In this document: one piece after another, positions 4,291-49,502 of the stretch
How positions within the stretch are numbered: the first letter of the stretch is position 1
Layout: every line of letters starts with the position of its first letter
DNA from: a virus
Direction: 5' to 3' (one strand)
Length of the DNA stretch: 63,552 nucleotides
Virus record (IMG/VR): IMGVR_UViG_3300022744_000006
Span: 1-63,552 of that record
The notes under the pieces: model-generated
What the model was told of the DNA's origin: nothing
The model's input: only the letters and a program-made list of their open reading frames with translations
Databases searched by the model: none
Program-made: the position numbers and the translations under genes

Positions 4291-5058
4291 ATGCTTGCCA
4301 CATTCGTACCGTCCTCAAAAAACTCCAAGCTCACCAACGATCCGAAGAGCGCAGCGATTGCGACTACGTACGTCTCTATCAAAGCTTCGTGCCCTCCTAC
4401 CTGCAAGCTTCGTGACGCAGGTTGCTATGGACAATCTGGCAACGTCTCGCACACAACGCGACGACTCGACAAAGCGGCTTCCGGACACGCTCCGCTAGAG
4501 GCCGCGAAGTCAGAGCATGATGCCATCACCTCTGCCATATCTGCGTTTCGAGGAGGCATGGTCCCGCAAGACGGCCACGGGGGGCGCGGAAGGGATCTAC
4601 GACTTCACACTGTTGGCGATACGGCAAGCCCAGAAGCAGCAAAACTGATCGCGCTTGCGGCTAAGCGCTGGACAAGCAAGTGCGGCTCTAAGCCCTATGG
4701 CTACACGCATGCTTGGCGTTTGGTGACACGTAAAAGCTTCGGTCGGCATGTGAGCATGCTCGCTAGCATCGACTCCCCTGACGAGCTTCAGGAGGCTCGC
4801 AAGCGTGGTTACGCTGTCGCTGCATACACCGACCGGTTCGAGTCCGATCGGGTGTACTTCGACAAGTCACTCGGAAGCAAGGTGCTTCCCTGTCCAGCGC
4901 AAACACGCGAGAACGTTTCGTGCGTCTCATGCAGAATGTGCATGAATGACGATCGGTTGAAGGCTCTCGGTCTTGTCGTGATGTTCGAGGCACACGGCGC
5001 GCGAAAGCGCGCTGTTGGCACCGCTGCGAAAAACAGAAGGTTAGAGGTGATCAAATGA
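4291..5058 (+). CDS. Gp88-like Cys-rich phage protein, 255 aa
   Basis: This resembles the phage 'gene product 88' family: an N-terminal SIKASCPPTCKLRDAGCYGQ cluster near residue 35, a central LRLHTVGDTASPEAAKL segment, an AYTDRF motif, and a C-terminal CPAQ...CVSCRMC cluster. The paired Cys clusters suggest metal or iron-sulfur binding; the role in the family is unknown to me. ATG 4291 has GGAG nine bases upstream, whereas the in-frame ATG at 4276 has none. It overlaps the next gene by four bases. Confidence 0.8.
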   Translation: MLATFVPSSKNSKLTNDPKSAAIATTYVSIKASCPPTCKLRDAGCYGQSGNVSHTTRRLDKAASGHAPLEAAKSEHDAITSAISAFRGGMVPQDGHGGRGRDLRLHTVGDTASPEAAKLIALAAKRWTSKCGSKPYGYTHAWRLVTRKSFGRHVSMLASIDSPDELQEARKRGYAVAAYTDRFESDRVYFDKSLGSKVLPCPAQTRENVSCVSCRMCMNDDRLKALGLVVMFEAHGARKRAVGTAAKNRRLEVIK

Positions 5059-5252
5059 GTGACGACGCTAGAGAGGCTATCAGGAAGAGCCTCAAAGACG
5101 GTGAACCACACCGCATTGACTGGTCAGAAGACGCGGAGGAATATCTAGGGCCTATTAGCATCTACTCCAAGCCCTTGGGTAACAGCATTCTCTACGTAGG
5201 AGAAACAGGGGCCGGCGCGGAATGGCGCGTTGAGGTTGTGATCTTCAAATGA
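5055..5252 (+). CDS. Hypothetical early protein, 65 aa
   Basis: Acidic small protein coupled to both neighbours through ATGA overlaps. The N-terminal half is helical and charged, the C-terminal half beta-like (SILYVGETGAGAEWRVEVVIF). Not recognised. Confidence 0.7.
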   Translation: MSDDAREAIRKSLKDGEPHRIDWSEDAEEYLGPISIYSKPLGNSILYVGETGAGAEWRVEVVIFK

Positions 5253-5584
5253 GAAGGTCGCGAGCTAGGTTCATTCGCGAGCTAGGCATTCTTCGCCTAT
5301 CTCGCGAGGAAATCGCGGCAAAGTGCGCGCTTGCTGGATACCGTCGACCGTCTTCGCAGGCTATGCACCGAGCATTGACCTACTCACCCACCGGAATGCC
5401 GCGCGGTCGGCCGCGCAAGACACCAAGCTTCAAACAGCTTGCGGCTGAGCTTGTTGACGCGTACCAGGCTGCCGTAGACGCCGGAGTACCGCTTGCGGTA
5501 ACCAGAAGACTGAAAAACGTAGTTGTGTTGGCCGAAGAGATGCTCGACCAGGAGGAGAAAACAAAATGTCACAGCAAGCTTTGA
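5249..5584 (+). CDS. Putative DNA-binding protein with HTH-like segment and AT-hook, 111 aa
   Basis: The N-terminal 45 residues read as a helix-turn-helix (LRLSREEIAAKCALAG followed by a basic recognition-like helix), and residues 50-58 contain RGRPRKTP, an AT-hook core. The remainder is helical. A small DNA-binding regulator of early transcription or a nucleoid-associated protein is plausible; no specific family is identified. The next gene starts inside its 3' end behind an AGGAGGAG site. Confidence 0.6.
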   Translation: MRRSRARFIRELGILRLSREEIAAKCALAGYRRPSSQAMHRALTYSPTGMPRGRPRKTPSFKQLAAELVDAYQAAVDAGVPLAVTRRLKNVVVLAEEMLDQEEKTKCHSKL

Positions 5585-5787
5585 CGATCATTCTGTTTGT
5601 ATTCATGCTCGCGTGCTGCCCAAGCGGCTGCTCAAGTCGAGGCGTTCCCAAGGAAGCGCTCGTGATGAACTCCACACCGGAGTCTGATTACGGCACATGC
5701 TACAGCCCAAAGCCACGTTGCCAGTTTGGCGAGATGCCGTTCTGCTCGTGCAACATGGCCATGCGTTGCCGCTGGGTCTGCCCATGA
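5566..5787 (+). CDS. Cys-rich secreted or lipoprotein, 73 aa
   Basis: A short hydrophobic N-terminus (LTIILFVFMLACCPSGCSS) looks like a signal peptide with lipobox-like cysteines, followed by a domain with six or more further Cys. This would be exported and disulfide- or lipid-linked, perhaps a superinfection-exclusion or envelope factor; that is inference from topology only. It has a very strong SD and overlaps both neighbours. Confidence 0.65.
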   Translation: MSQQALTIILFVFMLACCPSGCSSRGVPKEALVMNSTPESDYGTCYSPKPRCQFGEMPFCSCNMAMRCRWVCP

Positions 5788-7543: not shown

Positions 7544-7589
7544 AAGCGAAATCTGTGGTCGTGATGTCATGGCTGGCGACACTTCCACA

Positions 7590-7624
7590 AACGCCCCGCC
7601 CCGGATTCCCCGAGGTGGGGCGTT
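7590..7624. terminator. Hairpin between convergent operons
   Basis: AACGCCCCGCC (7590..7600) pairs with GGTGGGGCGTT (7614..7624), eleven pairs with one G-T. It sits between the stop of the rightward early operon and the stop of the leftward lysis operon, so it probably serves both strands. Confidence 0.6.
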
Positions 7625-7628
7625 CGAT

Positions 7629-8477
7629 TTACGGGACTTGAGAAATGGCGAACACGGGAGAAGCCTCGAACACCGGATCGCGGTGGCCGCCGTAGACGTA
7701 GGTCGGTGACTGCGACGCCGGGAGCATGCGTCGGACGCGCGCGATCACTTTGCCGGGGCTTTCGCTCGGATATGACGCGAGTACTTTCCGAAGGGCACCC
7801 GTGAAAGCCCCGTTGTTCGTGCCGTCCTCCGCCGTTTGATTGTCCTGGCACGCTCCGAACGCCAGCAATGAAGCCTTGATCTTGGATCGGCTCCTGGCGC
7901 TGGCCTTGGCGAGCGCATAGACCCCCTGATTTCGGAACCATACCGAGCTGACCAGGTCATTCGGCATGGCTCGGGATGAGCTCGCCAGTGGCCGGTCGGT
8001 CCCGGCCGAATGCATGACCCTGGCCATCGTTCCGGAGTGGCAGGAGTCAGACACGAAAAACAAGCGCACCCCGGCCGCGAACCTGGACCAGGCAAGCTCA
8101 AGTTCATCGTCGATGATTTGCCGATCGTACATGCAAATCGTCTCATCATAGCCGTTGTCGTTGCCATCCTGATCGGGCACTTGTCCGCCATGCGAGCTGG
8201 ACGTGACAACAACGATGTCGCCCGGCTTTGCGGTCTTGGACATGTCCAGTAGCCAGCGCAACACGACCGAGCTCACAGCCTGCTTAGTCAGCAAGATGTC
8301 GGTGGCGAATCCCTTGGATTTCAGCAGATCGCGCATGTCTTCGGCATCCGCTTCGCATGCATTCAGCCGGCCCGACCAACCGTCGTAATGCGCCGGATCT
8401 ACGGCGTTCAGACCGATGCAGAGCGCGTACCCTTTGCCGGGTTGAACGGTTGCCTTTTTCCAAAACTTGAGGTTCAT
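7629..8477 (-). CDS. Metacaspase-like (caspase-fold) cysteine protease, 282 aa
   Basis: A p20-type caspase domain fills the protein. GYALCIGLN begins the fold at residue 16; SSSHGGQ holds the catalytic His96; DGNDNGYDE and IIDDEL are typical metacaspase segments; FFVSDSCHSG holds the catalytic Cys146; GACQDNQTAED plus GAFTGAL are the usual C-terminal marks of bacterial orthocaspases. Both catalytic residues are present, so an active Arg/Lys- or Asp-type protease is plausible. The ATG at 8477 has GGAG seven bases upstream and overlaps the stop of the M15 peptidase gene, so the two are coupled and probably expressed late. No signal peptide. A caspase in a phage lysis position is unusual; it may act in host killing, virion maturation or against a host system. 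Confidence 0.88.
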   Translation of the reverse strand: MNLKFWKKATVQPGKGYALCIGLNAVDPAHYDGWSGRLNACEADAEDMRDLLKSKGFATDILLTKQAVSSVVLRWLLDMSKTAKPGDIVVVTSSSHGGQVPDQDGNDNGYDETICMYDRQIIDDELELAWSRFAAGVRLFFVSDSCHSGTMARVMHSAGTDRPLASSSRAMPNDLVSSVWFRNQGVYALAKASARSRSKIKASLLAFGACQDNQTAEDGTNNGAFTGALRKVLASYPSESPGKVIARVRRMLPASQSPTYVYGGHRDPVFEASPVFAISQVP

Positions 8478-9046
8478 CGCCATTCTCCAATCTCGAAATG
8501 CATGGGGTCGATCATTTTTCCTCCCCAATCCGCTCCGCACACTATCCCGGCCTCCCAGGTTGTGCCGTGGAAAGGATCGATGATCGGGACATGAACGGTG
8601 CGCGCCTTTTCGATGATCGGCCCCAGCCATCCGATCTCCCCTTGCTTCGCCCCAGGCGTCGAGCGCCGGTTCTGCTCGGGGTTGAAATCCATGGCAATGC
8701 CGCGGCTGTGCCGGCTCAAGAACGGCGCCCAATCCCGCGTGTAGTCTGACGTGTCCGGAAGGTTCGCGCCCCGCATGATGCGTGGAACGAAGCTGCCCCC
8801 GAACGTCAGAATGCACTCGCATTCTTGGCGGCGGAACGATCGGAACCACTCCTCGAACACTGGCGCGGCGCGCTTGTGCACGCGGATGTGCGTGGTGATC
8901 TTTGTTGGAATGGGGAGCTTCAGATTGACAAGGTTGTCGGCCTCCCACTTCAGCGGGACCTTGACCTTGCCTGACTCGTCTATCGTGAACGACAGATCGA
9001 AGTTTGTGATCAGTCGAGACTTGGTCAGCTGTTGAACCACGGGCAT
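8474..9046 (-). CDS. M15-family zinc peptidase, probable endolysin, 190 aa
   Basis: The C-terminal half has the M15 (VanY/L-Ala-D-Glu or D-Ala-D-Ala peptidase) signature: SRHSRGIAMDFNP gives His113 and Asp120, and DPMHFE gives His183 with Glu185, the expected zinc ligands and catalytic acid. Phage members cut peptidoglycan cross-links at lysis. The N-terminal 60 residues are beta-like and may be a substrate-binding or virion-attached segment. No signal peptide, so it would need a holin to reach the wall. It is coupled downstream to the metacaspase gene and overlaps the small gene upstream by 22 bases. Confidence 0.85.
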   Translation of the reverse strand: MPVVQQLTKSRLITNFDLSFTIDESGKVKVPLKWEADNLVNLKLPIPTKITTHIRVHKRAAPVFEEWFRSFRRQECECILTFGGSFVPRIMRGANLPDTSDYTRDWAPFLSRHSRGIAMDFNPEQNRRSTPGAKQGEIGWLGPIIEKARTVHVPIIDPFHGTTWEAGIVCGADWGGKMIDPMHFEIGEWR

Positions 9047-9273
9047 GTCTCACCTTCGGTTTCGGGCGACTTCACCGCCCGACACAAGACGCACTGCGGG
9101 TGAGGCAACTTCAGGTATGGCTGCTGACCAGGAGTCCAGTCAGCGTACACGTTCCACACATGTTGCATGCTCGGGTGGGCCGGGCGCGCGGCTGCTGGCG
9201 GCTTCCCGCGAACTAACAGCTTTCGCAGGAAGCCAGCCAGCCTGACTAGCCTGGACCGAACTGCATCCATCAC
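9025..9273 (-). CDS. Hypothetical small protein, 82 aa
   Basis: Basic N-terminus with a hydrophobic helix (VRSRLVRLAGFLRKLLVRG), then a Pro-rich part and a CVLC motif with a further Cys near the end. It overlaps the endolysin start. It could be a small membrane-active lysis partner, but nothing proves this. Confidence 0.5.
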   Translation of the reverse strand: MMDAVRSRLVRLAGFLRKLLVRGKPPAAARPAHPSMQHVWNVYADWTPGQQPYLKLPHPQCVLCRAVKSPETEGETCPWFNS

Positions 9274-9296: not shown

Positions 9297-9563
9297 TCAG
9301 GTAACAACGGGCGTCTTTGCTAACATTTGTAGCTCAGCCAGAGCCCTTGCTCTACGGGCGTTCTGAAGCTCGTACACCGCCTCCGACGGTGTGAGCTTTC
9401 CGTCTGCCTCAATCTGGGTAAGCGCTTCCAGCCGCTCGAACGCGGCCAGCAGCTCAGCCTCTACCTCGCCCATCTCCCGCAGGCTTTCTGCGTCGGCCGG
9501 ACGGGAAGACGCGCGGGCGTAGGCGTGCACAAGCTCCATGTGTTTGTCTGTGAAGTGACTCAT
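9297..9563 (-). CDS. Hypothetical helical protein, 88 aa
   Basis: Almost entirely helical and acidic in its middle (ESLREMGEVEAELLAAFERLEAL). No motif recognised. The start overlaps the stop of the 235-aa gene upstream by four bases. Confidence 0.65.
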   Translation of the reverse strand: MSHFTDKHMELVHAYARASSRPADAESLREMGEVEAELLAAFERLEALTQIEADGKLTPSEAVYELQNARRARALAELQMLAKTPVVT

Positions 9564-10267
9564 CCTATGAACCTAAAGTTAGGGTTGAAACGAAACACGA
9601 TCCTGACACCCCAAGCGTCGCCTTCGGCGAGCTGGTTGTACTGCATCGGCACATGAAGCTTTCGCTTCTTGTTGTCGTTTGCCGAACCCAACCAGTACAC
9701 CATCTTGGCCTTGTTCACGCGAAAGCCCGACCACAGATCGTACGACCCATCGCGCACATGATGCATGGTGTGCATGTAGGAGTCGTCATCCGAGTCTCCA
9801 GGATGGATCCAAACGTAGCCGATTGCACCCAGCTTATCGTGCAATCGATCGTACTTCCCGCACTTCGGGTTCCATTTGAAATCGTACCCGCAGTGCTTCT
9901 CCGAAAGGGCCGCGGCACACGCTGAGTAAGTGGTCCTGCGCCACATTCTCACGCATCGACTGTGACCAGGTGTACCCTTGGGTGGCCAGTTTCTCCAGTG
10001 CGGCACGTGCATTGGGATCGTCACGATGTAGTCGTTCTCGACCCACGTCGACGCGACAACCAGGAGCTTCCCCGTGGCGTCTACCGACGGGATTTGATCG
10101 CCGCACTTGGACGGGTCGATCAGCTCAACCGAGTTGCTCTTTGAGCCATTCCGCGATTTCTTTCTGGCGGAGCTCATCGCTCGTTTTGCTGCAGCGCGCA
10201 GCTTCTGTTGCGGCGTCAGATCGTACCGCATCAACTCCTGGAGCCTCCCCATTGGCCAGTTTCTCAT
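9560..10267 (-). CDS. Hypothetical Trp/Tyr-rich protein, 235 aa
   Basis: The ATG at 10267 has GGAG six bases upstream, a good site. The first 45 residues are basic and helical; the rest is beta-like, with many Trp, Tyr and His and several Cys (KHCGYDFKWNPKCGKYD). The WxSG...YWLGSAND segment and HVP motifs suggest a carbohydrate- or surface-binding fold, but I do not recognise the family. Its first 143 bases overlap the gene at 10125..10463 in another frame and both have good ribosome sites. Confidence 0.6.
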   Translation of the reverse strand: MRNWPMGRLQELMRYDLTPQQKLRAAAKRAMSSARKKSRNGSKSNSVELIDPSKCGDQIPSVDATGKLLVVASTWVENDYIVTIPMHVPHWRNWPPKGTPGHSRCVRMWRRTTYSACAAALSEKHCGYDFKWNPKCGKYDRLHDKLGAIGYVWIHPGDSDDDSYMHTMHHVRDGSYDLWSGFRVNKAKMVYWLGSANDNKKRKLHVPMQYNQLAEGDAWGVRIVFRFNPNFRFIG

Positions 10268-10474: not shown

Positions 10475-11773
10475 TTACGCCGCGACGGGCGCGTCTTCGA
10501 ACCTGCAGTAGGCTTTCTTGAACTTCACCTCAACCTGGCCCAGCGGACCGCCTCGCTGCTTTTTAAGGTAGATCACGCTATCGTTGGTCTCGTCAGATGA
10601 CGAGATGAACAACACCACGTCTGCGTCCTGCTCGATCGCTCCCGACTCGCGTAGATCGCTGAGCTGCGGGACCCTTCCCTCTCTCGATTCAACTCCGCGA
10701 TTCATCTGAGCGAGCAAAATCACTGGGCAGGCAAGCTCTTTCGCGAGCAGCTTGCACTCGCGGCTGATCTCGGCAACGTCTTGCTCCCTGCTGCCCGACT
10801 GGCGCTCCGTCTTGACCAGCTGCAAGTAGTCGATGACGATCATACCAAGCTTTGATCGCATATTCTCGCGCCGAGCATGCCGCGCGATTTTCTCAATCGT
10901 CCAGCGGGCAGAGTCGACCACCAACATCTGCTTTCCGATCAGCTCGTGCATGGACGCGCTCATGCGGCGGAACTGATCCACGTTGAAACCTCGTCGGTTG
11001 ATCACTTTCGAGTCTACGTTGGAGCGCCCCGCAAGTACGCGCTCCGCGAGCTCCTCTTTGCTCATCTCAAAGCTGTAGATGATGACCTTCTCCCCGAAGT
11101 CCATCGCCGCCTCAGCACACTGCAACCCGAGCACGGTCTTGCCAGAACCGGGGCGTCCGGCAATCACCACGCTCTGCCCGGCCTTGAACCCGTCGAGCAA
11201 CCCGTCAAGCTTCTTGAGGGGTGCAGGGATGAACCTTGGAGCGCGCTTATTGCCGCGCTCAATGTCCATCGCATCACGCACAATCGGCTCCATGAGGTTC
11301 TCGATCGTGTCGGCCCGCACGGCATCCTCGCGGCTCGCCAGCGCCGCGCCGATCTCTGTTCCCGCAAGATCGATAATCGTCTCGGGGCTCGCCACGGCAG
11401 CCGGCGCGTGGGCCCATTCAAGCACCTTGCTGCACGCGTTGATCAGCTTTCGAAGGACCGCGAGGTTCTTGATCAGCGCTACCGCGCTGTCGAGCGCCTG
11501 GCCGGAAAGATAGGCATAGCCCGAGTGCAACATCTCGTCACAGAACTGGATTTGATCGGACCTGCCGGCGCAAGCCGCGCGTAACGAGACCATGTCGAGC
11601 TCGCCGTTCCGTTCGATCACGTCTCGCGCCGTTTCGAACATCCGGGAATGGAGGCTCAACGAGAAGTCCGACGGCCCGAGCGCTGCCATGCACACAGCAG
11701 CCGTCTCAGAGGAGAACACCAGCGCTGAGATCAACCGCTCCTCAAGCTCAACGTTCGTCGGAGGCTTAGGCAT
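10475..11773 (-). CDS. dnaB: Replicative DNA helicase, DnaB type, 432 aa
   Basis: The N-terminal helical domain (residues 1-100, ending about GYAYLSGQALDSAV) is followed by a RecA-like motor: Walker A GRPGSGKT at 206-213, the YSFEMSKEEL segment near 233, Walker B MIVIDYLQLV at 311-320 and ILLAQMNRGVESR near 345. These are the hallmarks of the phage and bacterial replication-fork helicase that unwinds DNA 5' to 3' as a hexamer. ATG 11773 is chosen because it matches the family start and has GGAGG nine bases upstream; the longer frame adds a basic non-family stretch. It overlaps the initiator gene by eight bases, consistent with loader and helicase being produced together. Confidence 0.93.
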   Translation of the reverse strand: MPKPPTNVELEERLISALVFSSETAAVCMAALGPSDFSLSLHSRMFETARDVIERNGELDMVSLRAACAGRSDQIQFCDEMLHSGYAYLSGQALDSAVALIKNLAVLRKLINACSKVLEWAHAPAAVASPETIIDLAGTEIGAALASREDAVRADTIENLMEPIVRDAMDIERGNKRAPRFIPAPLKKLDGLLDGFKAGQSVVIAGRPGSGKTVLGLQCAEAAMDFGEKVIIYSFEMSKEELAERVLAGRSNVDSKVINRRGFNVDQFRRMSASMHELIGKQMLVVDSARWTIEKIARHARRENMRSKLGMIVIDYLQLVKTERQSGSREQDVAEISRECKLLAKELACPVILLAQMNRGVESREGRVPQLSDLRESGAIEQDADVVLFISSSDETNDSVIYLKKQRGGPLGQVEVKFKKAYCRFEDAPVAA

Positions 11774-12785
11774 GCTGCGCCGCCTCCGCTGCCCACCTCG
11801 CACGAACCTCGTCCGCCTTTTGACGCATGGCAATGCGCGGGAACAGCGCCAGGAGATCGGCTTTCGTCTTCTCGTGCTCCTCCTGCGTGATCTCCATCTC
11901 CGGCTCCGGCTCGGGCGCTGGCAACGTGGGAAGTGATGGCTTCAGTACAGGCTTGGTGTATCTGGCGAGATATAACACCAAGTTGGATAGCCTGCATTTT
12001 ATCGACTTCGGGTCTTTTTGGTGATCTCTCACCATCCGCTCCACGACAGACTCAAAGAGCTTGTCGTCGGAGCCGCTTTCTTCGCGCGCAGCGGCCGCCA
12101 CAAGGCGCGCGGATTCTAGATCTGGGGGAACCTGCGCCGGTGTGCGTCCCTGCCCTCTGGCGAACAGCTCGTGCACGCGTTGGGCATCGGTCGAGCGGGG
12201 CGGCGAATCCAACTCTGGCCAGTGCGGCATCGCGGAAATCGGAGCTGGGGAAGAGGGAACAGGGGTAGCCGATGAGCGTTCCCCTCCCCCCTTCCCTGTT
12301 AGCCTCGTGCGTGCGTGCGCGGGCTCGCGTGCGTGCACGTCCGGGCGTGTGCGATCGCGCGCGGGTGCGCGTCTCTCTTCTGATCTTTCTCTCTGATCTA
12401 GAGAAACGACAGGGCCTGATTCCGCACACTTAGGTTGAGTAGACTTTGCGATGCGTTTACTTAACTCGGGGGGTTGGTCAACGCATCGCAAAGTCTCCGC
12501 AAAGACTTGGGGCTCAAAATGGAGTTGGACTCCGTCCTCATCCTGGGTAATAAAACCCGCCTTTACGAGCTTGTTCACTGCCGACTGAACGGCGGCCCGG
12601 TCCGACTTCGAAGGCAAGTCCAAGTCCCGAACCAGGAGATCGATGGAGGAGTTAAGAGTGCCGTTTTCCGATATTGACCAAAGTCGGATCATGACGCTCG
12701 AGTGATGAAACGAGAGCTTGCGCCAGGCCGGAGGGAGCTCGGCCGGTAGTGGCCGAAACTTGTACGGGACCTTGGAGGACTTCAT
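11766..12785 (-). CDS. Winged-helix replication initiator / helicase loader, 339 aa
   Basis: Residues 15-95 look like a winged-helix domain (WRKLSFHHSSVMIRLW, then NSSIDLLVRDLDLPSKSDRA and AVQSAVNKLVKAGFITQ), as in phage replisome organisers. Residues 130-180 are a charged Arg/Ala/His/Pro linker encoded by an alternating GC-rich tract. The C-terminal part (200-290) resembles the region that contacts helicase in such proteins. Position directly upstream of and overlapping the DnaB gene supports a role in origin binding and helicase loading. A 17-bp inverted repeat within the coding sequence (12441..12496) could be its binding site. The exact family is not proven. Confidence 0.7.
   Translation of the reverse strand: MKSSKVPYKFRPLPAELPPAWRKLSFHHSSVMIRLWSISENGTLNSSIDLLVRDLDLPSKSDRAAVQSAVNKLVKAGFITQDEDGVQLHFEPQVFAETLRCVDQPPELSKRIAKSTQPKCAESGPVVSLDQRERSEERRAPARDRTRPDVHAREPAHARTRLTGKGGGERSSATPVPSSPAPISAMPHWPELDSPPRSTDAQRVHELFARGQGRTPAQVPPDLESARLVAAAAREESGSDDKLFESVVERMVRDHQKDPKSIKCRLSNLVLYLARYTKPVLKPSLPTLPAPEPEPEMEITQEEHEKTKADLLALFPRIAMRQKADEVRARWAAEAAQHA
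12441..12496. repeat. 17-bp perfect inverted repeat inside initiator gene, candidate origin site
   Basis: AGACTTTGCGATGCGTT (12441..12457) is the exact reverse complement of 12480..12496, separated by 22 bases. A partial third copy, CGCAAAGAC, follows at about 12499. The half-site GACTTTGCG also occurs in the promoter at 13518..13546. Some phages place the origin inside the initiator gene (lambda O is the classic case), so an origin or iteron role is plausible. Confidence 0.55.
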
Positions 12786-13590: not shown

Positions 13591-14118
13591 ATGACGCGAG
13601 ATCAACATATGGCTGATCCGGGGGATGTGCCGGACGGCCCCGAGTCGGAGAACGATCGGGAGGATCGTCAGCTGCGCGAGAGGCTGGCTGAGGAAGAGGC
13701 GGCCGCAGAAGCGGATCGTCGCAATGCGGAGTGGGACAAGCACATGACCATGCTGTCCGAGCGCGACGGGAGATCGGAGGAGTGGAAGGCGGCGGAGCTG
13801 GACCCTGCGTGGGATGTTCCCGCGGAAACGACAGAGGTGTCTACCCCGCGCGAGTACGACATCGAGACTGCCGGAATGATGGTGACCGTTCGGTCTTGGC
13901 TGGAAATCGCGAAGAAGGAAGCGTCTGGCAAGGACACAGCCGAAGAGCAGATCGACGATTTGGCGGCGTTGCGCGCTCTTGTCGACGAGACGGTGGCATT
14001 TCTGATCCAGGCAGAGATTGCCAGACTCAAAGGCAAGGCTGCCGAGCTTGGTTTATCGGTGTCAGAGCGCAAGACGCGATCGGACAAGGGCACGAGCAGA
14101 AAGGGGCGCTCGTCATGA
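13591..14118 (+). CDS. Hypothetical acidic protein, 175 aa
   Basis: First gene of the recombination operon, with GGGAGG before the ATG. Residues 1-60 are highly acidic with a run of Glu/Arg/Ala. Residues 95-150 are helical (VTVRSWLEIAKKEASG...AQLDD-like) and the end is basic (KTRSDKGTSRKGR). It may be a recombination accessory, given its overlap with the Erf gene, but I do not recognise the family. Confidence 0.75.
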   Translation: MTRDQHMADPGDVPDGPESENDREDRQLRERLAEEEAAAEADRRNAEWDKHMTMLSERDGRSEEWKAAELDPAWDVPAETTEVSTPREYDIETAGMMVTVRSWLEIAKKEASGKDTAEEQIDDLAALRALVDETVAFLIQAEIARLKGKAAELGLSVSERKTRSDKGTSRKGRSS

Positions 14119-15101
14119 CGGATCAGGTTGTCACTTCAGAAAAGCCTAGGGGTATCTTTTCTTGCATGCTGGAGGCGCAAGCTGCGTTCGGTCGCGTCGG
14201 GATCCCCAAAAACAGCATGGCCGACTTTGGCGGAGGCTCAAAGCGAGCGTACCGGAGCATTGATGATGTGCTACCGGAAGCGAACGCGATTCTGACGGCT
14301 GCAGGGATAGTGATACTTCCGTCCGTGGTCGACGTTGAGTACAAGAGGTACGATGTCGAGAAAGGATCGGGAAATAACAAGTACACCACGACTACTACGG
14401 TTGCGTTGCTAACGATCGAATATCGCATCGTGTGCGTTGAAGACGGATCGTTCGTAACGATCCGTTGGATCGGGGAAGGTGTAGACGGTAGCGATAAGTC
14501 ATCCGGAAAATCAGGTTCTTATGCGTACAAGAACTTCTTGGTGAACACCTTCTGCATCCCTGTAAAGGGTCAGCCGGAGCCGGAGCGGGACAATATCCCG
14601 CAACCTTCAAGCGGGAACAGCGAAAGCAAGGCGGCATCGCAGTCGTCCCCGGCGATCGCTGTCCCGCGTGTGAAAAACAGCAAGCTCAAGAATCACGGAG
14701 CTTTGCTGTCTGAACTGACCGACGATGAGGCTTCGGCGTACTGCCGGGGCATGGTGCACCAGCTTGAGTCAACGAAGCAAAAGCTTGAGGTTCCTCCTCA
14801 AGACCAGGAAGCCAAGGACAAGCTCGTGAAGCTCTCGTCTTGGCTTGAGAGAGAGATTCGGACGGTGTCCGGATATCTGGTGAAAGAGAGAAACCTTCCG
14901 AACTGGAACATCTCCAATGGCGAGGTCGGGAAGTCCGTTCACCCTGACACGCGGGGAAAGCGGGTTGTCGACCTGACTGACGAGCAGTTGGTTGCGCTCA
15001 TCGCTCACCTAGAGCGACTGGGGGAGAGCGAAGAAGTAAACAGGCGACTGGCACTGTGCGAAATGGTTTTCGAAGCAAGAAAGAACGGTGACCAGCCATA
15101 A
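14115..15101 (+). CDS. erf: Erf-family single-strand annealing recombinase, 328 aa
   Basis: The N-terminal 160 residues match the Erf/Sak-type annealing fold: KRAYRSIDDVLPEANAILTAAGI near residue 45, a beta region, then GSDKSSGKSGSYAYKNFLVNTFCIP near 130-155, the most characteristic segment. The C-terminal half is Lys/Glu-rich and may bind partners. Such proteins anneal ssDNA during phage recombination and replication, working with SSB, which is encoded in the same operon. ATG 14115 overlaps the previous stop; the longer frame to 13731 is a shadow. Confidence 0.85.
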   Translation: MTDQVVTSEKPRGIFSCMLEAQAAFGRVGIPKNSMADFGGGSKRAYRSIDDVLPEANAILTAAGIVILPSVVDVEYKRYDVEKGSGNNKYTTTTTVALLTIEYRIVCVEDGSFVTIRWIGEGVDGSDKSSGKSGSYAYKNFLVNTFCIPVKGQPEPERDNIPQPSSGNSESKAASQSSPAIAVPRVKNSKLKNHGALLSELTDDEASAYCRGMVHQLESTKQKLEVPPQDQEAKDKLVKLSSWLEREIRTVSGYLVKERNLPNWNISNGEVGKSVHPDTRGKRVVDLTDEQLVALIAHLERLGESEEVNRRLALCEMVFEARKNGDQP

Positions 15102-15118
15102 CGAAAGAAGCCGCTGAC

Positions 15119-15985
15119 ATGAATGCCGATGAGGAGAAGGCCGCTCTCATCGGTGCGCTAAACGCTGACTTTCACAGGATGTCTCGCGTCGGATCGGACG
15201 TAGAGCTGTCCACGGGAGATGTGATCACAACGGTCGAAGAGTCTAGCCTTGGCGTCCGCAGATGGAACATGCACGTTGCTTACGTAGGACGATCCACCTC
15301 GGGAAGGTTCTGGATGTGGTCTTACGACAGGGGATTGACGGAGAATCAGGAGGACAGTTTCGACTCCGATCACAACGTCAAGGAGGTGTGGCCGAAGAAG
15401 GTCGTCCGAGAATCCACGGAGTGGCACAGCCAGCCGACGGTGGAGAAGCCATCTCTCGCGTCTATTGTCGCGAGGTTCCTAGATGCAATGGAGGAGAGCG
15501 GAGGTGAGACGGTTGACGCGGTGGAAGAGGCCGCGGCGCTGTACGCTGACAAGATCGAAGCGTACCGATCCATCGTCCCGGTGATAGAAGCACAGGCAAA
15601 GAGTCTCAAAGACCAGGCAGCGCTGCTCAGGGAGAGATCAGATCGTTTGTACAGCAAGATCGACTCGCTAAGGGAGCGTGTTGTCGACAGCATGTACGCC
15701 GTTGGCACGCGAAAGGTCAGCACGAGCTTCGGGAACGTGACGCTCGTGCAATCGAAGTCAGTGCAGGTGGGTGACGCATGGGCGATCACCATGCATGATT
15801 CTCATCCAGAGTTTGTTCGCGTTTCATACGCTCCCGATAAGACGGCGCTGAAAGAGCGGTGGCTCGCCGAAACCAAGAGACTGGTCGAGTCCGGTCTTTC
15901 CAAAGCACAAGCGGAAGCGCATGCCATCACCGCGCTTCCGCCTGGGGTGGACATTGTCACCAAAGAATCAATCCGCGGGTTGTGA
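15119..15985 (+). CDS. Gp157-like recombination-associated protein with extra N-terminal domain, 288 aa
   Basis: Residues about 110-288 resemble the siphovirus Gp157 family: VEEAAALYADKIEAYRS, coiled-coil LRERSDRLYSKIDSLRERVVDSM, then GTRKVSTSFGNVTLVQSKSV and the C-terminal LPPGVDIVTKESIRGL. Such genes commonly sit with Erf/Sak and SSB. The first 105 residues form an additional acidic beta-like domain that I do not recognise. The SD is weak. Confidence 0.75.
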   Translation: MNADEEKAALIGALNADFHRMSRVGSDVELSTGDVITTVEESSLGVRRWNMHVAYVGRSTSGRFWMWSYDRGLTENQEDSFDSDHNVKEVWPKKVVRESTEWHSQPTVEKPSLASIVARFLDAMEESGGETVDAVEEAAALYADKIEAYRSIVPVIEAQAKSLKDQAALLRERSDRLYSKIDSLRERVVDSMYAVGTRKVSTSFGNVTLVQSKSVQVGDAWAITMHDSHPEFVRVSYAPDKTALKERWLAETKRLVESGLSKAQAEAHAITALPPGVDIVTKESIRGL

Positions 15986-37582: not shown

Positions 37583-38911
37583 TTAGGAAGCCAGCGCGAC
37601 GCCGCCGTTGGCGGTGTTGTTCTGGATGCCCGTGATCAGGAAGTTGCGGTACGGCATCTCAAACACAGGAGCCTGGTTCGAGAAGATGCGCATCGAAGCG
37701 CCCGCGTTGCTCGGCATGTGCGTGAAGAAAGCCTCCGCGCCGCCGCCGATTGGACGCATCGTCAGGTCGGTTGAGCCGACGCGACGGAAGTTGTCCGTGG
37801 AGATAAAGAACGCCTGGCCCTGCTTGGCGTACTGGTAGACGGTCACCTCGATGATTCCCGCTGCCGTCTCGTACATCAGCTGGCTTGCGCCCTGACGCTT
37901 CACCTTGTCGGTGTTGCCGGTGAAGCGCTGCAGAGCACTTGCCTCTTCGGCAAGGTCAGCGAAGGTCGGCGCGCAGACGAACAGCTTGCCGCCGTTCTTC
38001 ACGCCGTTGATGGACACGGCAGCCGCCATGGCCATGATCTTCGCGCGCGACAGGGCGCCGCCCGCGGAGAATGTCATGCAGCGCCACGGAGCAACCGACG
38101 CGGCGTTGATGCCGAAGATGGTACCCGTGTTGTTGTAGATGGCTTCGAGTCCGAAGCACGACTTGGTGCGCCATCCCAGCGGGACGATGCGGTCGTTCGC
38201 CGCGACGGTCGCCGCCGAAGCTGCCTTGGTCAGCGTAAGACGGGTCTGCGTGGTGCTCGGGCGAGCGTCCACGTTGACGTTGGTCTCGCGGAGCGTGGTG
38301 CCGTCAGCCTGGTAGATGTCGACCTTCATGCCGCTGCCGGCAGAGCCGGAGCCGCCGCCGGAGGCGATGATCCACAAGCCGGGGATCCAGCTCGCTTCCG
38401 TGAGGTAGACGACCTGCGTGGCGCCGAGGTTGACGCCGGAGACAGATCCGCCGACCACGCCGATGTTCGAGGCAATGGCAGTCGATGTGCCCGGACCGTA
38501 CGCCAGGGCGAGCTCGCGGTAGAGCGCAGCACCCTGCAGCATCGCCTGAACGGTCTGGTCGAGTGCGGTCTTGTAGGACCCACCCGTGCTGCCGTTGCCG
38601 TTGCCGTTGAGGCTCTTGTAGATCGTGTCGTACGACACAACCGACTGGAGCATGATCGTTGCGCCGTCGAGGTTCGCATTGAGTACGGTCGAATCGACCG
38701 CGGGATTCAGTGCGAATGCGCTGTTGTCGACGTTCGCGGTCTGGCCGAGCTCGAGGCCGGTCAGGACGGGAAAGTTGTAACCGAGACCGGGGCGGTTCTC
38801 GGAGGGAACGAAGTCACCGGCATCAGCCAGGGTGTGCTCGTCTGGCAGCGGGTCGATCCATCGACCGTAGCGCTGCTTGAACATACCCTGGACGTTAGTA
38901 AAACTCGCCAT
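37583..38911 (-). CDS. Major capsid protein, 442 aa
   Basis: The context (terminase, portal, scaffold, then this) and sequence fit a HK97-like capsid protein: an N-terminal arm (VQGMFKQRYGRWIDPLPDEHTL), a central Gly/Ser-rich beta region, and a C-terminal half with GGALSRAKIMAMAAAVSINGVKNGGKLFVCAPTFADL and TDLTMRPIGGGAEAFFTHM, then a final FLITGIQNN. GGAG lies eight bases before the ATG. It has its own candidate promoter (39239..39266), a hairpin leader and a terminator, so it is probably expressed as a strong single-gene transcript. Confidence 0.85.
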   Translation of the reverse strand: MASFTNVQGMFKQRYGRWIDPLPDEHTLADAGDFVPSENRPGLGYNFPVLTGLELGQTANVDNSAFALNPAVDSTVLNANLDGATIMLQSVVSYDTIYKSLNGNGNGSTGGSYKTALDQTVQAMLQGAALYRELALAYGPGTSTAIASNIGVVGGSVSGVNLGATQVVYLTEASWIPGLWIIASGGGSGSAGSGMKVDIYQADGTTLRETNVNVDARPSTTQTRLTLTKAASAATVAANDRIVPLGWRTKSCFGLEAIYNNTGTIFGINAASVAPWRCMTFSAGGALSRAKIMAMAAAVSINGVKNGGKLFVCAPTFADLAEEASALQRFTGNTDKVKRQGASQLMYETAAGIIEVTVYQYAKQGQAFFISTDNFRRVGSTDLTMRPIGGGAEAFFTHMPSNAGASMRIFSNQAPVFEMPYRNFLITGIQNNTANGGVALAS

Positions 38912-49357: not shown

Positions 49358-49430
49358 GCGTCACCCCGTTCATTGGGTAAGCGAGGGCAAGCGATGTGCA
49401 GGAGCCACCTACCACACCGCCCGCCCCCGG

Positions 49431-49502
49431 CTAAGCACCCAGGACTCGAACCTGGAACCTTCGGATTTGGAATCCGATGCTCTGCCATTGAGCTAGTGCC
49501 TA
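49431..49502 (-). tRNA. tRNA-Trp (CCA anticodon)
   Basis: A full cloverleaf can be drawn on the minus strand: acceptor TAGGCAC/GTGCTTA with one G-T, TA at positions 8-9, D stem GCTC/GAGC, anticodon stem TCGGA/TCCGA with loop TTCCAAA (anticodon CCA), five-base variable loop, and T arm CCAGG-TTCGAGT-CCTGG. Discriminator G. The 3' CCA is not encoded. It reads UGG. It may supply tRNA-Trp if the host pool is degraded or limited. Confidence 0.93.

What the first reader, a model, noticed from the sequence alone, without database searches (positions are those of the whole stretch)
7629..9046. Metacaspase translationally coupled to the endolysin
A complete metacaspase-like domain (His96, Cys146, DGNDNGYDE, GAFT) starts inside the stop codon of the M15 endolysin. 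Caspase-type enzymes are known in bacteria mainly in defence and death systems, so a phage carrying one in a lysis cassette is surprising. It could trigger host death, process virion proteins, or cleave a host defence factor.
Basis: partly seen in the sequence, partly recalled or inferred. Interest (0 to 1): 0.82.

Follow-up and report, generated by a model that had tools for sequence, protein, structure and literature searches.

The report
Phage metacaspase in exchangeable cargo slot
A bacterial virus carries an apparently intact caspase-type protease directly behind its cell-wall-cutting enzyme, but close relatives have an unrelated enzyme or nothing like it there, so it looks like swappable cargo for handling the host rather than a fixed part of the lysis machinery.

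Summary
Window 7629-8477 (-) encodes a 282-residue metacaspase (Pfam C14, E 2.7e-23) whose ATG overlaps the M15 endolysin stop (ATGA), with a GGAG ribosome site. The nearest solved structure is GSU0716 (3bij, ~40% identity; AlphaFold model pLDDT 86). His96 and Cys146 are kept in all 49 viral and 87 bacterial relatives. An Arg/Lys aligning with the peptide that blocks the GSU0716 active site is kept in 44/49 and 86/87, suggesting a zymogen. The gene belongs to a three-member phage-only clade whose genomes share terminase, portal and capsid protein. It follows a non-homologous endolysin (TIGR02594) in one sister and sits before the terminase in the other.

The 'lysis cassette' reading is only partly supported. 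The operon runs DnaB...endolysin-metacaspase-terminator, with no recognised holin or spanin. Relatives with 89-90% identical capsid protein keep the endolysin but lack the metacaspase; in two, the slot behind it holds a flavin amine oxidase. I read it as exchangeable accessory cargo, co-expressed with the endolysin, probably an Arg/Lys-specific protease acting on host proteins. Substrate and phenotype are untested. Virion maturation is unlikely. Metacaspases are known in bacteria and giant viruses, but rare and essentially undescribed in tailed phages.

The parts
7629..8477 (-). Metacaspase gene (Peptidase C14, GSU0716 type), 282 aa; His96 (SSHGG), Cys146 (SDSCHSG), D111/E112, D123/D124, auto-inhibition/cleavage-site candidate R169 (SRAMP)
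   Evidence: translation; PF00656 E 2.7e-23; 3bij E 6.5e-59; conservation; model pLDDT 85.6; Foldseek 3bij E 5e-28
8474..9046 (-). M15 D-Ala-D-Ala peptidase endolysin, 190 aa
   Evidence: PF13539 E 4.2e-07; PHROG endolysin; homologues in related phages
8474..8488 (-). Coupling junction: GGAG ribosome-binding site inside the endolysin 3' end and ATGA stop/start overlap
   Evidence: sequence
7580..7628 (-). Strong GC-rich hairpin right after the metacaspase stop, between convergent gene runs; likely transcription terminator, so the metacaspase is the last gene
   Evidence: MFE -32.5 kcal/mol, z -3.1; terminator-like match at 7608-7620 (+ strand)
9025..9273 (-). Small conserved ORF (82 aa, with several Cys) overlapping the endolysin start; conserved in relatives that lack the metacaspase
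9560..10267 (-). Conserved 235-aa protein of unknown function in the same gene run; also present in relatives without the metacaspase
10475..11833 (-). DnaB-like replicative helicase upstream in the gene run that ends with endolysin and metacaspase
   Evidence: PF03796 E 1.7e-74; 60% identical in G052
37583..38911 (-). Major capsid protein used to define the phage lineage
   Evidence: PHROG major head protein; 45-60% identical in G001/G002, 89-90% in G050-G052

Best explanation
The gene is a GSU0716-type metacaspase carried as exchangeable accessory cargo at the end of the endolysin operon of a tailed-phage lineage. Being overlapped with the endolysin stop, it should be made together with the endolysin. 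It is probably a zymogen: a loop carrying Arg169 (SRAMP), which aligns with the peptide occupying the active site of the GSU0716 crystal structure, would block Cys146 until cleaved. It would then act as a cytoplasmic Arg/Lys-specific cysteine protease on host proteins towards the end of infection (host takeover, removal of a resistance factor, or hastening death), a benefit that some phages of the lineage get from other genes or do without. Shown: gene, fold, conserved dyad, conserved basic loop residue, stop/start overlap, phage-only clade, replacement of the slot in relatives. Inferred: activity, zymogen control, timing, host-protein substrates.
For: Domain and fold. Dyad conserved. Basic residue at 169 conserved in 44/49 viral and 86/87 bacterial homologues; auto-blocking IRYRA peptide in 3BIJ: PMC3881575. 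Phage-only clade window+L010+L011, support 100/99, nested in the bacterial family. The three phages share terminase, portal, capsid and tail proteins. Slot replacement: homologous endolysin (59-65%) present but no caspase in G050-G052; amine oxidase directly behind it in G051 and G052. Overlap recurs with a non-homologous TIGR02594 endolysin in L010. Codon use and GC match the phage core, so it is not a fresh arrival. No signal peptide or membrane segment is apparent to the eye in the sequence (no predictor run).
Against: Peptidoglycan-hydrolase genes lie within 1.5 kb of phage caspase genes more often than expected (4 seen, 0.5 expected, p about 0.0008; 3 vs 0.45, p about 0.008 without the window), which favours a real link to lysis. 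The clade replaces the near-universal YSGHG before the catalytic His by SSHG; the effect on activity is unknown. No enzyme assay exists. The replacement reading rests on two phages with the exact amine-oxidase slot.
Confidence: 0.5

Rival explanations
1. A dedicated lysis factor: the protease is released or activated when the membrane fails and degrades host envelope or cytoplasmic proteins, helping the endolysin finish lysis.
For: ATGA overlap with two non-homologous endolysins in sister phages; both M15 genes found among 50 caspase-bearing viral records lie beside the caspase; SLT transglycosylase near it in L033; enrichment p about 0.001; metacaspases fused to Amidase_2 or PG-binding domains and an amidase in the Geobacter metacaspase operon (PMC3501461).
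Against: Relatives keep the endolysin and lack the metacaspase; the slot holds an amine oxidase in G051/G052; G002 has it away from the endolysin; most other phage caspases have non-lysis neighbours.
Confidence: 0.2
2. An immunity or counter-immunity effector: it cleaves a host defence protein, or kills the cell or blocks a competitor when a second phage infects.
For: Patchy presence and slot replacement typical of phage accessory genes; caspase-type proteases act in bacterial defence, e.g. with gasdermins (PMC9612521); the PADLOC caspase model matches (E 1.5e-06).
Against: No defence partner recognised among the neighbours scanned and no gasdermin among the shown PADLOC matches for the window; no promoter of its own found, and overlap with the endolysin predicts lytic-cycle expression rather than a standing defence.
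Confidence: 0.2
3. A virion or prohead maturation protease.
For: Sister G002 carries it just upstream of the terminase.
Against: Relatives with 89-90% identical major capsid protein lack it; in the window it is 29 kb from the head genes; fold and family are metacaspase, not a known prohead protease family.
Confidence: 0.04
4. A passenger gene with little or no protease function.
For: Absent from most relatives; SSHG in place of YSGHG in this clade.
Against: Dyad, conserved acidic residues and loop residue all kept across 47-49% identity in three phages; open frame with phage-like codon use.
Confidence: 0.06

Closest known systems
GSU0716 / prokaryotic single-chain metacaspases (Peptidase C14, Geobacter sulfurreducens, PDB 3bij)
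   Same: Same fold over the whole chain, about 40% identity, same dyad and the R-A-M-P loop that blocks the active site in the crystal (PMC3881575).
   Different: Encoded by a tailed phage behind an endolysin; SSHG instead of YSGHG; short N-terminal MNLKFWKK extension.
Bacterial metacaspases fused to or co-operonic with amidases (PMC3501461)
   Same: A metacaspase linked to a peptidoglycan hydrolase.
   Different: There in bacterial genomes, in some cases as one polypeptide; here separate genes in a phage, with two different hydrolase families.
Phage-related metacaspase operons of Clostridium botulinum (PMC3501461)
   Same: Earlier report of metacaspases in phage-like operons.
   Different: Only noted as 'phage-related' in bacterial genomes; no lysis-gene link, lineage or slot analysis in the passage read. 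Not compared directly here.
Giant-virus metacaspases (medusavirus, Clandestinovirus, Yasminevirus and others)
   Same: Virus-encoded metacaspase fold (PMC6450098).
   Different: Viruses of eukaryotes, about 20% identity; different hosts and gene context.
Bacterial gasdermin operons (caspase-like protease + gasdermin, sometimes amidase)
   Same: A caspase-type protease and a cell-wall hydrolase can be neighbours (PMC9612521).
   Different: No gasdermin recognised here.
Phage accessory ('moron') genes next to lysis or late genes, e.g. lambda bor (from memory)
   Same: Non-core gene at an operon end, absent or replaced in relatives, followed by a terminator-like hairpin.
   Different: No promoter of its own found; no foreign composition.

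Membership tests
Metacaspase (Peptidase C14, GSU0716 type) | Caspase fold with p20 and p10-like parts in one chain | tested here: met
   PF00656 positions 2-223 of 233; Foldseek to 3bij TM 0.79-0.84, E 5e-28
Metacaspase (Peptidase C14, GSU0716 type) | His/Cys catalytic dyad in HG and DSCHSG motifs | tested here: met
   H96, C146, invariant in 136 homologues; but YSG before the His is SSS here
Metacaspase (Peptidase C14, GSU0716 type) | Conserved acidic residues of the substrate pocket / metal site | tested here: met
   D111, D123 and D124 invariant in 87 bacterial homologues and kept here; their metal role is taken from other metacaspases, from memory
Metacaspase (Peptidase C14, GSU0716 type) | Cleavage after Arg/Lys, Ca-dependent, zymogen auto-processing | not testable with these tools
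   Only a conserved R/K at the blocking-peptide position (PMC3881575)
Phage lysis cassette (holin-endolysin-spanin) | Contiguous holin and spanin with the endolysin | tested here: inconclusive
   No holin or spanin recognised in the neighbours scanned; upstream genes are DnaB and conserved small proteins
Phage lysis cassette (holin-endolysin-spanin) | Member conserved with the endolysin in relatives | tested here: not met
   Endolysin kept, metacaspase absent in G050-G052, G055, G056
Phage accessory cargo (moron) | Absent or replaced at the same place in close relatives | tested here: met
   Amine oxidase in the slot in G051/G052; conserved flanks
Phage accessory cargo (moron) | Own promoter and terminator, foreign composition | tested here: not met
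   Terminator-like hairpin present, but no promoter found and phage-like composition
Bacterial gasdermin system | Gasdermin gene beside the protease | tested here: not met
   No PADLOC gasdermin match to the neighbours scanned and none in the 25 of 31 families shown for 58 window ORFs

The most novel reading that the evidence does not exclude
A tailed-phage lineage uses a zymogen metacaspase, co-translated with whichever endolysin it has, as a terminal host-killing or host-dismantling protease: a phage-run counterpart of programmed cell death that couples protein degradation to cell-wall lysis.
Probability: 0.2. Interest if true: 0.85.

Novelty: new variant of a known kind. Interest (0 to 1): 0.56.

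Why it matters
Caspase-type proteases in bacteria are discussed mainly as death or defence effectors. A phage clade that keeps one across roughly 50% sequence divergence, and places it behind unrelated endolysins, would show phages deploying this machinery themselves. In the collections searched they are very rare: one match in 50,697 INPHARED phage records, about 50 of 2.9 million IMG/VR contigs, no PHROG family, and nearly all of the significant matches in BFVD come from viruses of eukaryotes, mostly giant viruses. The slot comparison (metacaspase versus flavin amine oxidase behind the same endolysin) also offers a concrete handle on what endolysin-linked cargo does.

Tried and rejected
Single-protein scans of viral and genome collections found no relatives because the patterns were too specific; alignment-based scans fixed this. 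A general 'phage caspases sit in lysis cassettes' claim was tested on 126 neighbour proteins and rejected: neighbours are mixed, although hydrolases are enriched. A gasdermin partner was looked for and not found. The N-terminal amphipathic-looking peptide (MNLKFWKK) was considered as a membrane anchor and dropped because L011 lacks it. Host assignment failed: the nearest cultured phage by capsid is distant (24% over 40%, Silvanigrella phage) and the terminase has no match. Literature on tailed-phage metacaspases: none found beyond the C. botulinum remark.

Full report
Observation. The window is an IMG/VR virus record of a tailed phage, with major head, portal and terminase hits. Two genes lie at 7629-9046, both on the minus strand. 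The first is a 190-aa M15 peptidase endolysin, 9046-8474 (PF13539, E 4.2e-07). The second is a 282-aa metacaspase, 8477-7629 (PF00656, E 2.7e-23). The metacaspase ATG overlaps the endolysin TGA (ATGA), and a GGAG sits 7 nt upstream, inside the endolysin. A strong hairpin follows the metacaspase stop (-32.5 kcal/mol, z -3.1), so it is the last gene of its run. Upstream on the same strand, tightly packed, are small conserved ORFs, a conserved 235-aa protein and a DnaB helicase. I found no recognisable holin or spanin beside the endolysin, so 'lysis cassette' overstates the context.

What the protein is. The best solved match is GSU0716 of Geobacter (3bij), E 6.5e-59 by sequence and E 5e-28 by fold with 40% identity. 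The AlphaFold model is confident (pLDDT 85.6, pTM 0.85), except for the loop 148-167 just after the catalytic Cys. His96 and Cys146 are invariant in 49 viral and 87 bacterial homologues. Because the first viral scan used the Cys motif as bait and the bacterial scan partly the His motif, the viral count is the cleaner one for His and the bacterial count for Cys. In 3bij the active site is filled by the protein's own peptide IRYRA (PMC3881575). The matching residue here is Arg169 of SRAMP, and a basic residue is kept there in 44/49 viral and 86/87 bacterial homologues. I infer a zymogen with Arg/Lys preference. One departure: the usual YSGHG before the catalytic His is SSHG in the window, L010 and L011.

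Where it sits in evolution. A tree of 107 proteins puts the window with L010 (100/96) and L011 (100/99) as a phage-only clade inside the bacterial GSU0716-type family. Other viral caspases enter elsewhere: the viral label needs 7 changes, at least 3 forced by well-supported branches, so there were several transfers. The tool marked the bootstrap as not fully settled and some long branches as unsure. The three phages of the clade share terminase (31-47%), portal (26-45%), major capsid protein (41-60%) and tail proteins, so they are one distant lineage. In G001 (L010) the metacaspase again starts in an ATGA overlap, but with a non-homologous endolysin, TIGR02594. In G002 (L011) it lies just before the terminase, about 44 kb along the contig from the TIGR02594 endolysin.

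The decisive comparison. Scanning for the capsid protein gave closer relatives: G050, G051 and G052 with 89-90% identical capsid protein. All three carry the M15 endolysin (59-65%), but a Peptidase_C14 search found no caspase in any of the 12 other lineage records, several of which are partial contigs. In G051 and G052 the place directly behind the endolysin holds a flavin amine oxidase (PF01593, E 2e-74 in G052, 74% identical in G051), with a GTGA overlap in G051 and a gap of a few bases in G052. In G050 the amine oxidase lies upstream and an HNH ORF follows the endolysin. Flanking genes are shared with the window. The position is therefore an exchangeable slot. Codon use and GC of the metacaspase match the phage core, so it is not a recent arrival.

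Is there a wider link to lysis? Among 50 caspase-bearing viral records, nine hydrolase genes of four families were found. Four lie within 1.5 kb of the caspase, where 0.5 are expected (p about 0.0008; about 0.008 without the window). The families were partly chosen after looking at neighbours, so the p values are somewhat optimistic. Against this, 126 neighbour proteins of viral caspases show mixed functions. Bacterial metacaspases fused to amidases, and an amidase in the Geobacter metacaspase operon, are on record (PMC3501461); among 63 bacterial neighbour proteins here only a few are amidase or PG-binding, and 7 are papain-like peptidases.

Mechanism. I favour an accessory protease, made with the endolysin and acting on host proteins late in infection. 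A dedicated lysis role and an immunity-related role are serious rivals (0.2 each). Virion maturation is unlikely, since relatives with almost the same capsid lack the gene. All functional steps are inference.

Novelty. Metacaspases are known in bacteria, in giant viruses (PMC6450098), and as 'phage-related' operons in C. botulinum (PMC3501461). For tailed phages I found one weak match in 50,697 INPHARED records, no PHROG, and no described case in the papers searched. I file it as a new variant of a known kind: a known protease family in a new carrier and an endolysin-coupled, exchangeable position.

Noticed in passing
L202:7028-8365 (-) = G052:27027-28364; also G051:10058-11458, G050:38734-40209: Close relatives of this phage carry a flavin amine oxidase (PF01593) beside or near the endolysin, in G051/G052 exactly where the window has the metacaspase; I did not look further into how common phage-borne amine oxidases are.
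   Followed up: partly
G050:36687-37112 (L200:7688-8113, -): An HNH endonuclease ORF whose C-terminal part is a copy of the endolysin C terminus lies directly behind the intact endolysin, suggesting homing-endonuclease insertion with partial gene duplication.
   Followed up: partly
L139:4134-4862 and 4859-5635: In an unrelated phage an M15 endolysin, a 100-aa gene and a distant caspase lie in one tight same-strand run: a second M15-caspase association.
   Followed up: partly
L012:8959-10792: DUF1353 protein, SNase-like nuclease (weak match) and metacaspase in overlapping order (ATGA), a possible nuclease-protease pair in a phage.
   Followed up: no
bacterial neighbours and L048:8271-9734: Papain-like C1 peptidases are repeatedly adjacent to GSU0716-type metacaspases in bacteria (7 of 63 neighbours) and a papain-like gene lies upstream of one phage caspase.
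   Followed up: no
window 13731-15985: ERF recombinase followed by a Siphovirus Gp157-like protein.
   Followed up: no
window, one of 58 ORFs scanned: Strong match to type II / orphan DNA methyltransferase models (E 1.4e-53), probably an anti-restriction gene.
   Followed up: no
window 49429-49502 (-): A single tRNA-Trp gene in the phage genome.
   Followed up: no
window 7629-8477, L010, L011: SSHG in place of the near-universal YSGHG around the catalytic His throughout this phage clade (three other homologues of 136 share the S).
   Followed up: partly
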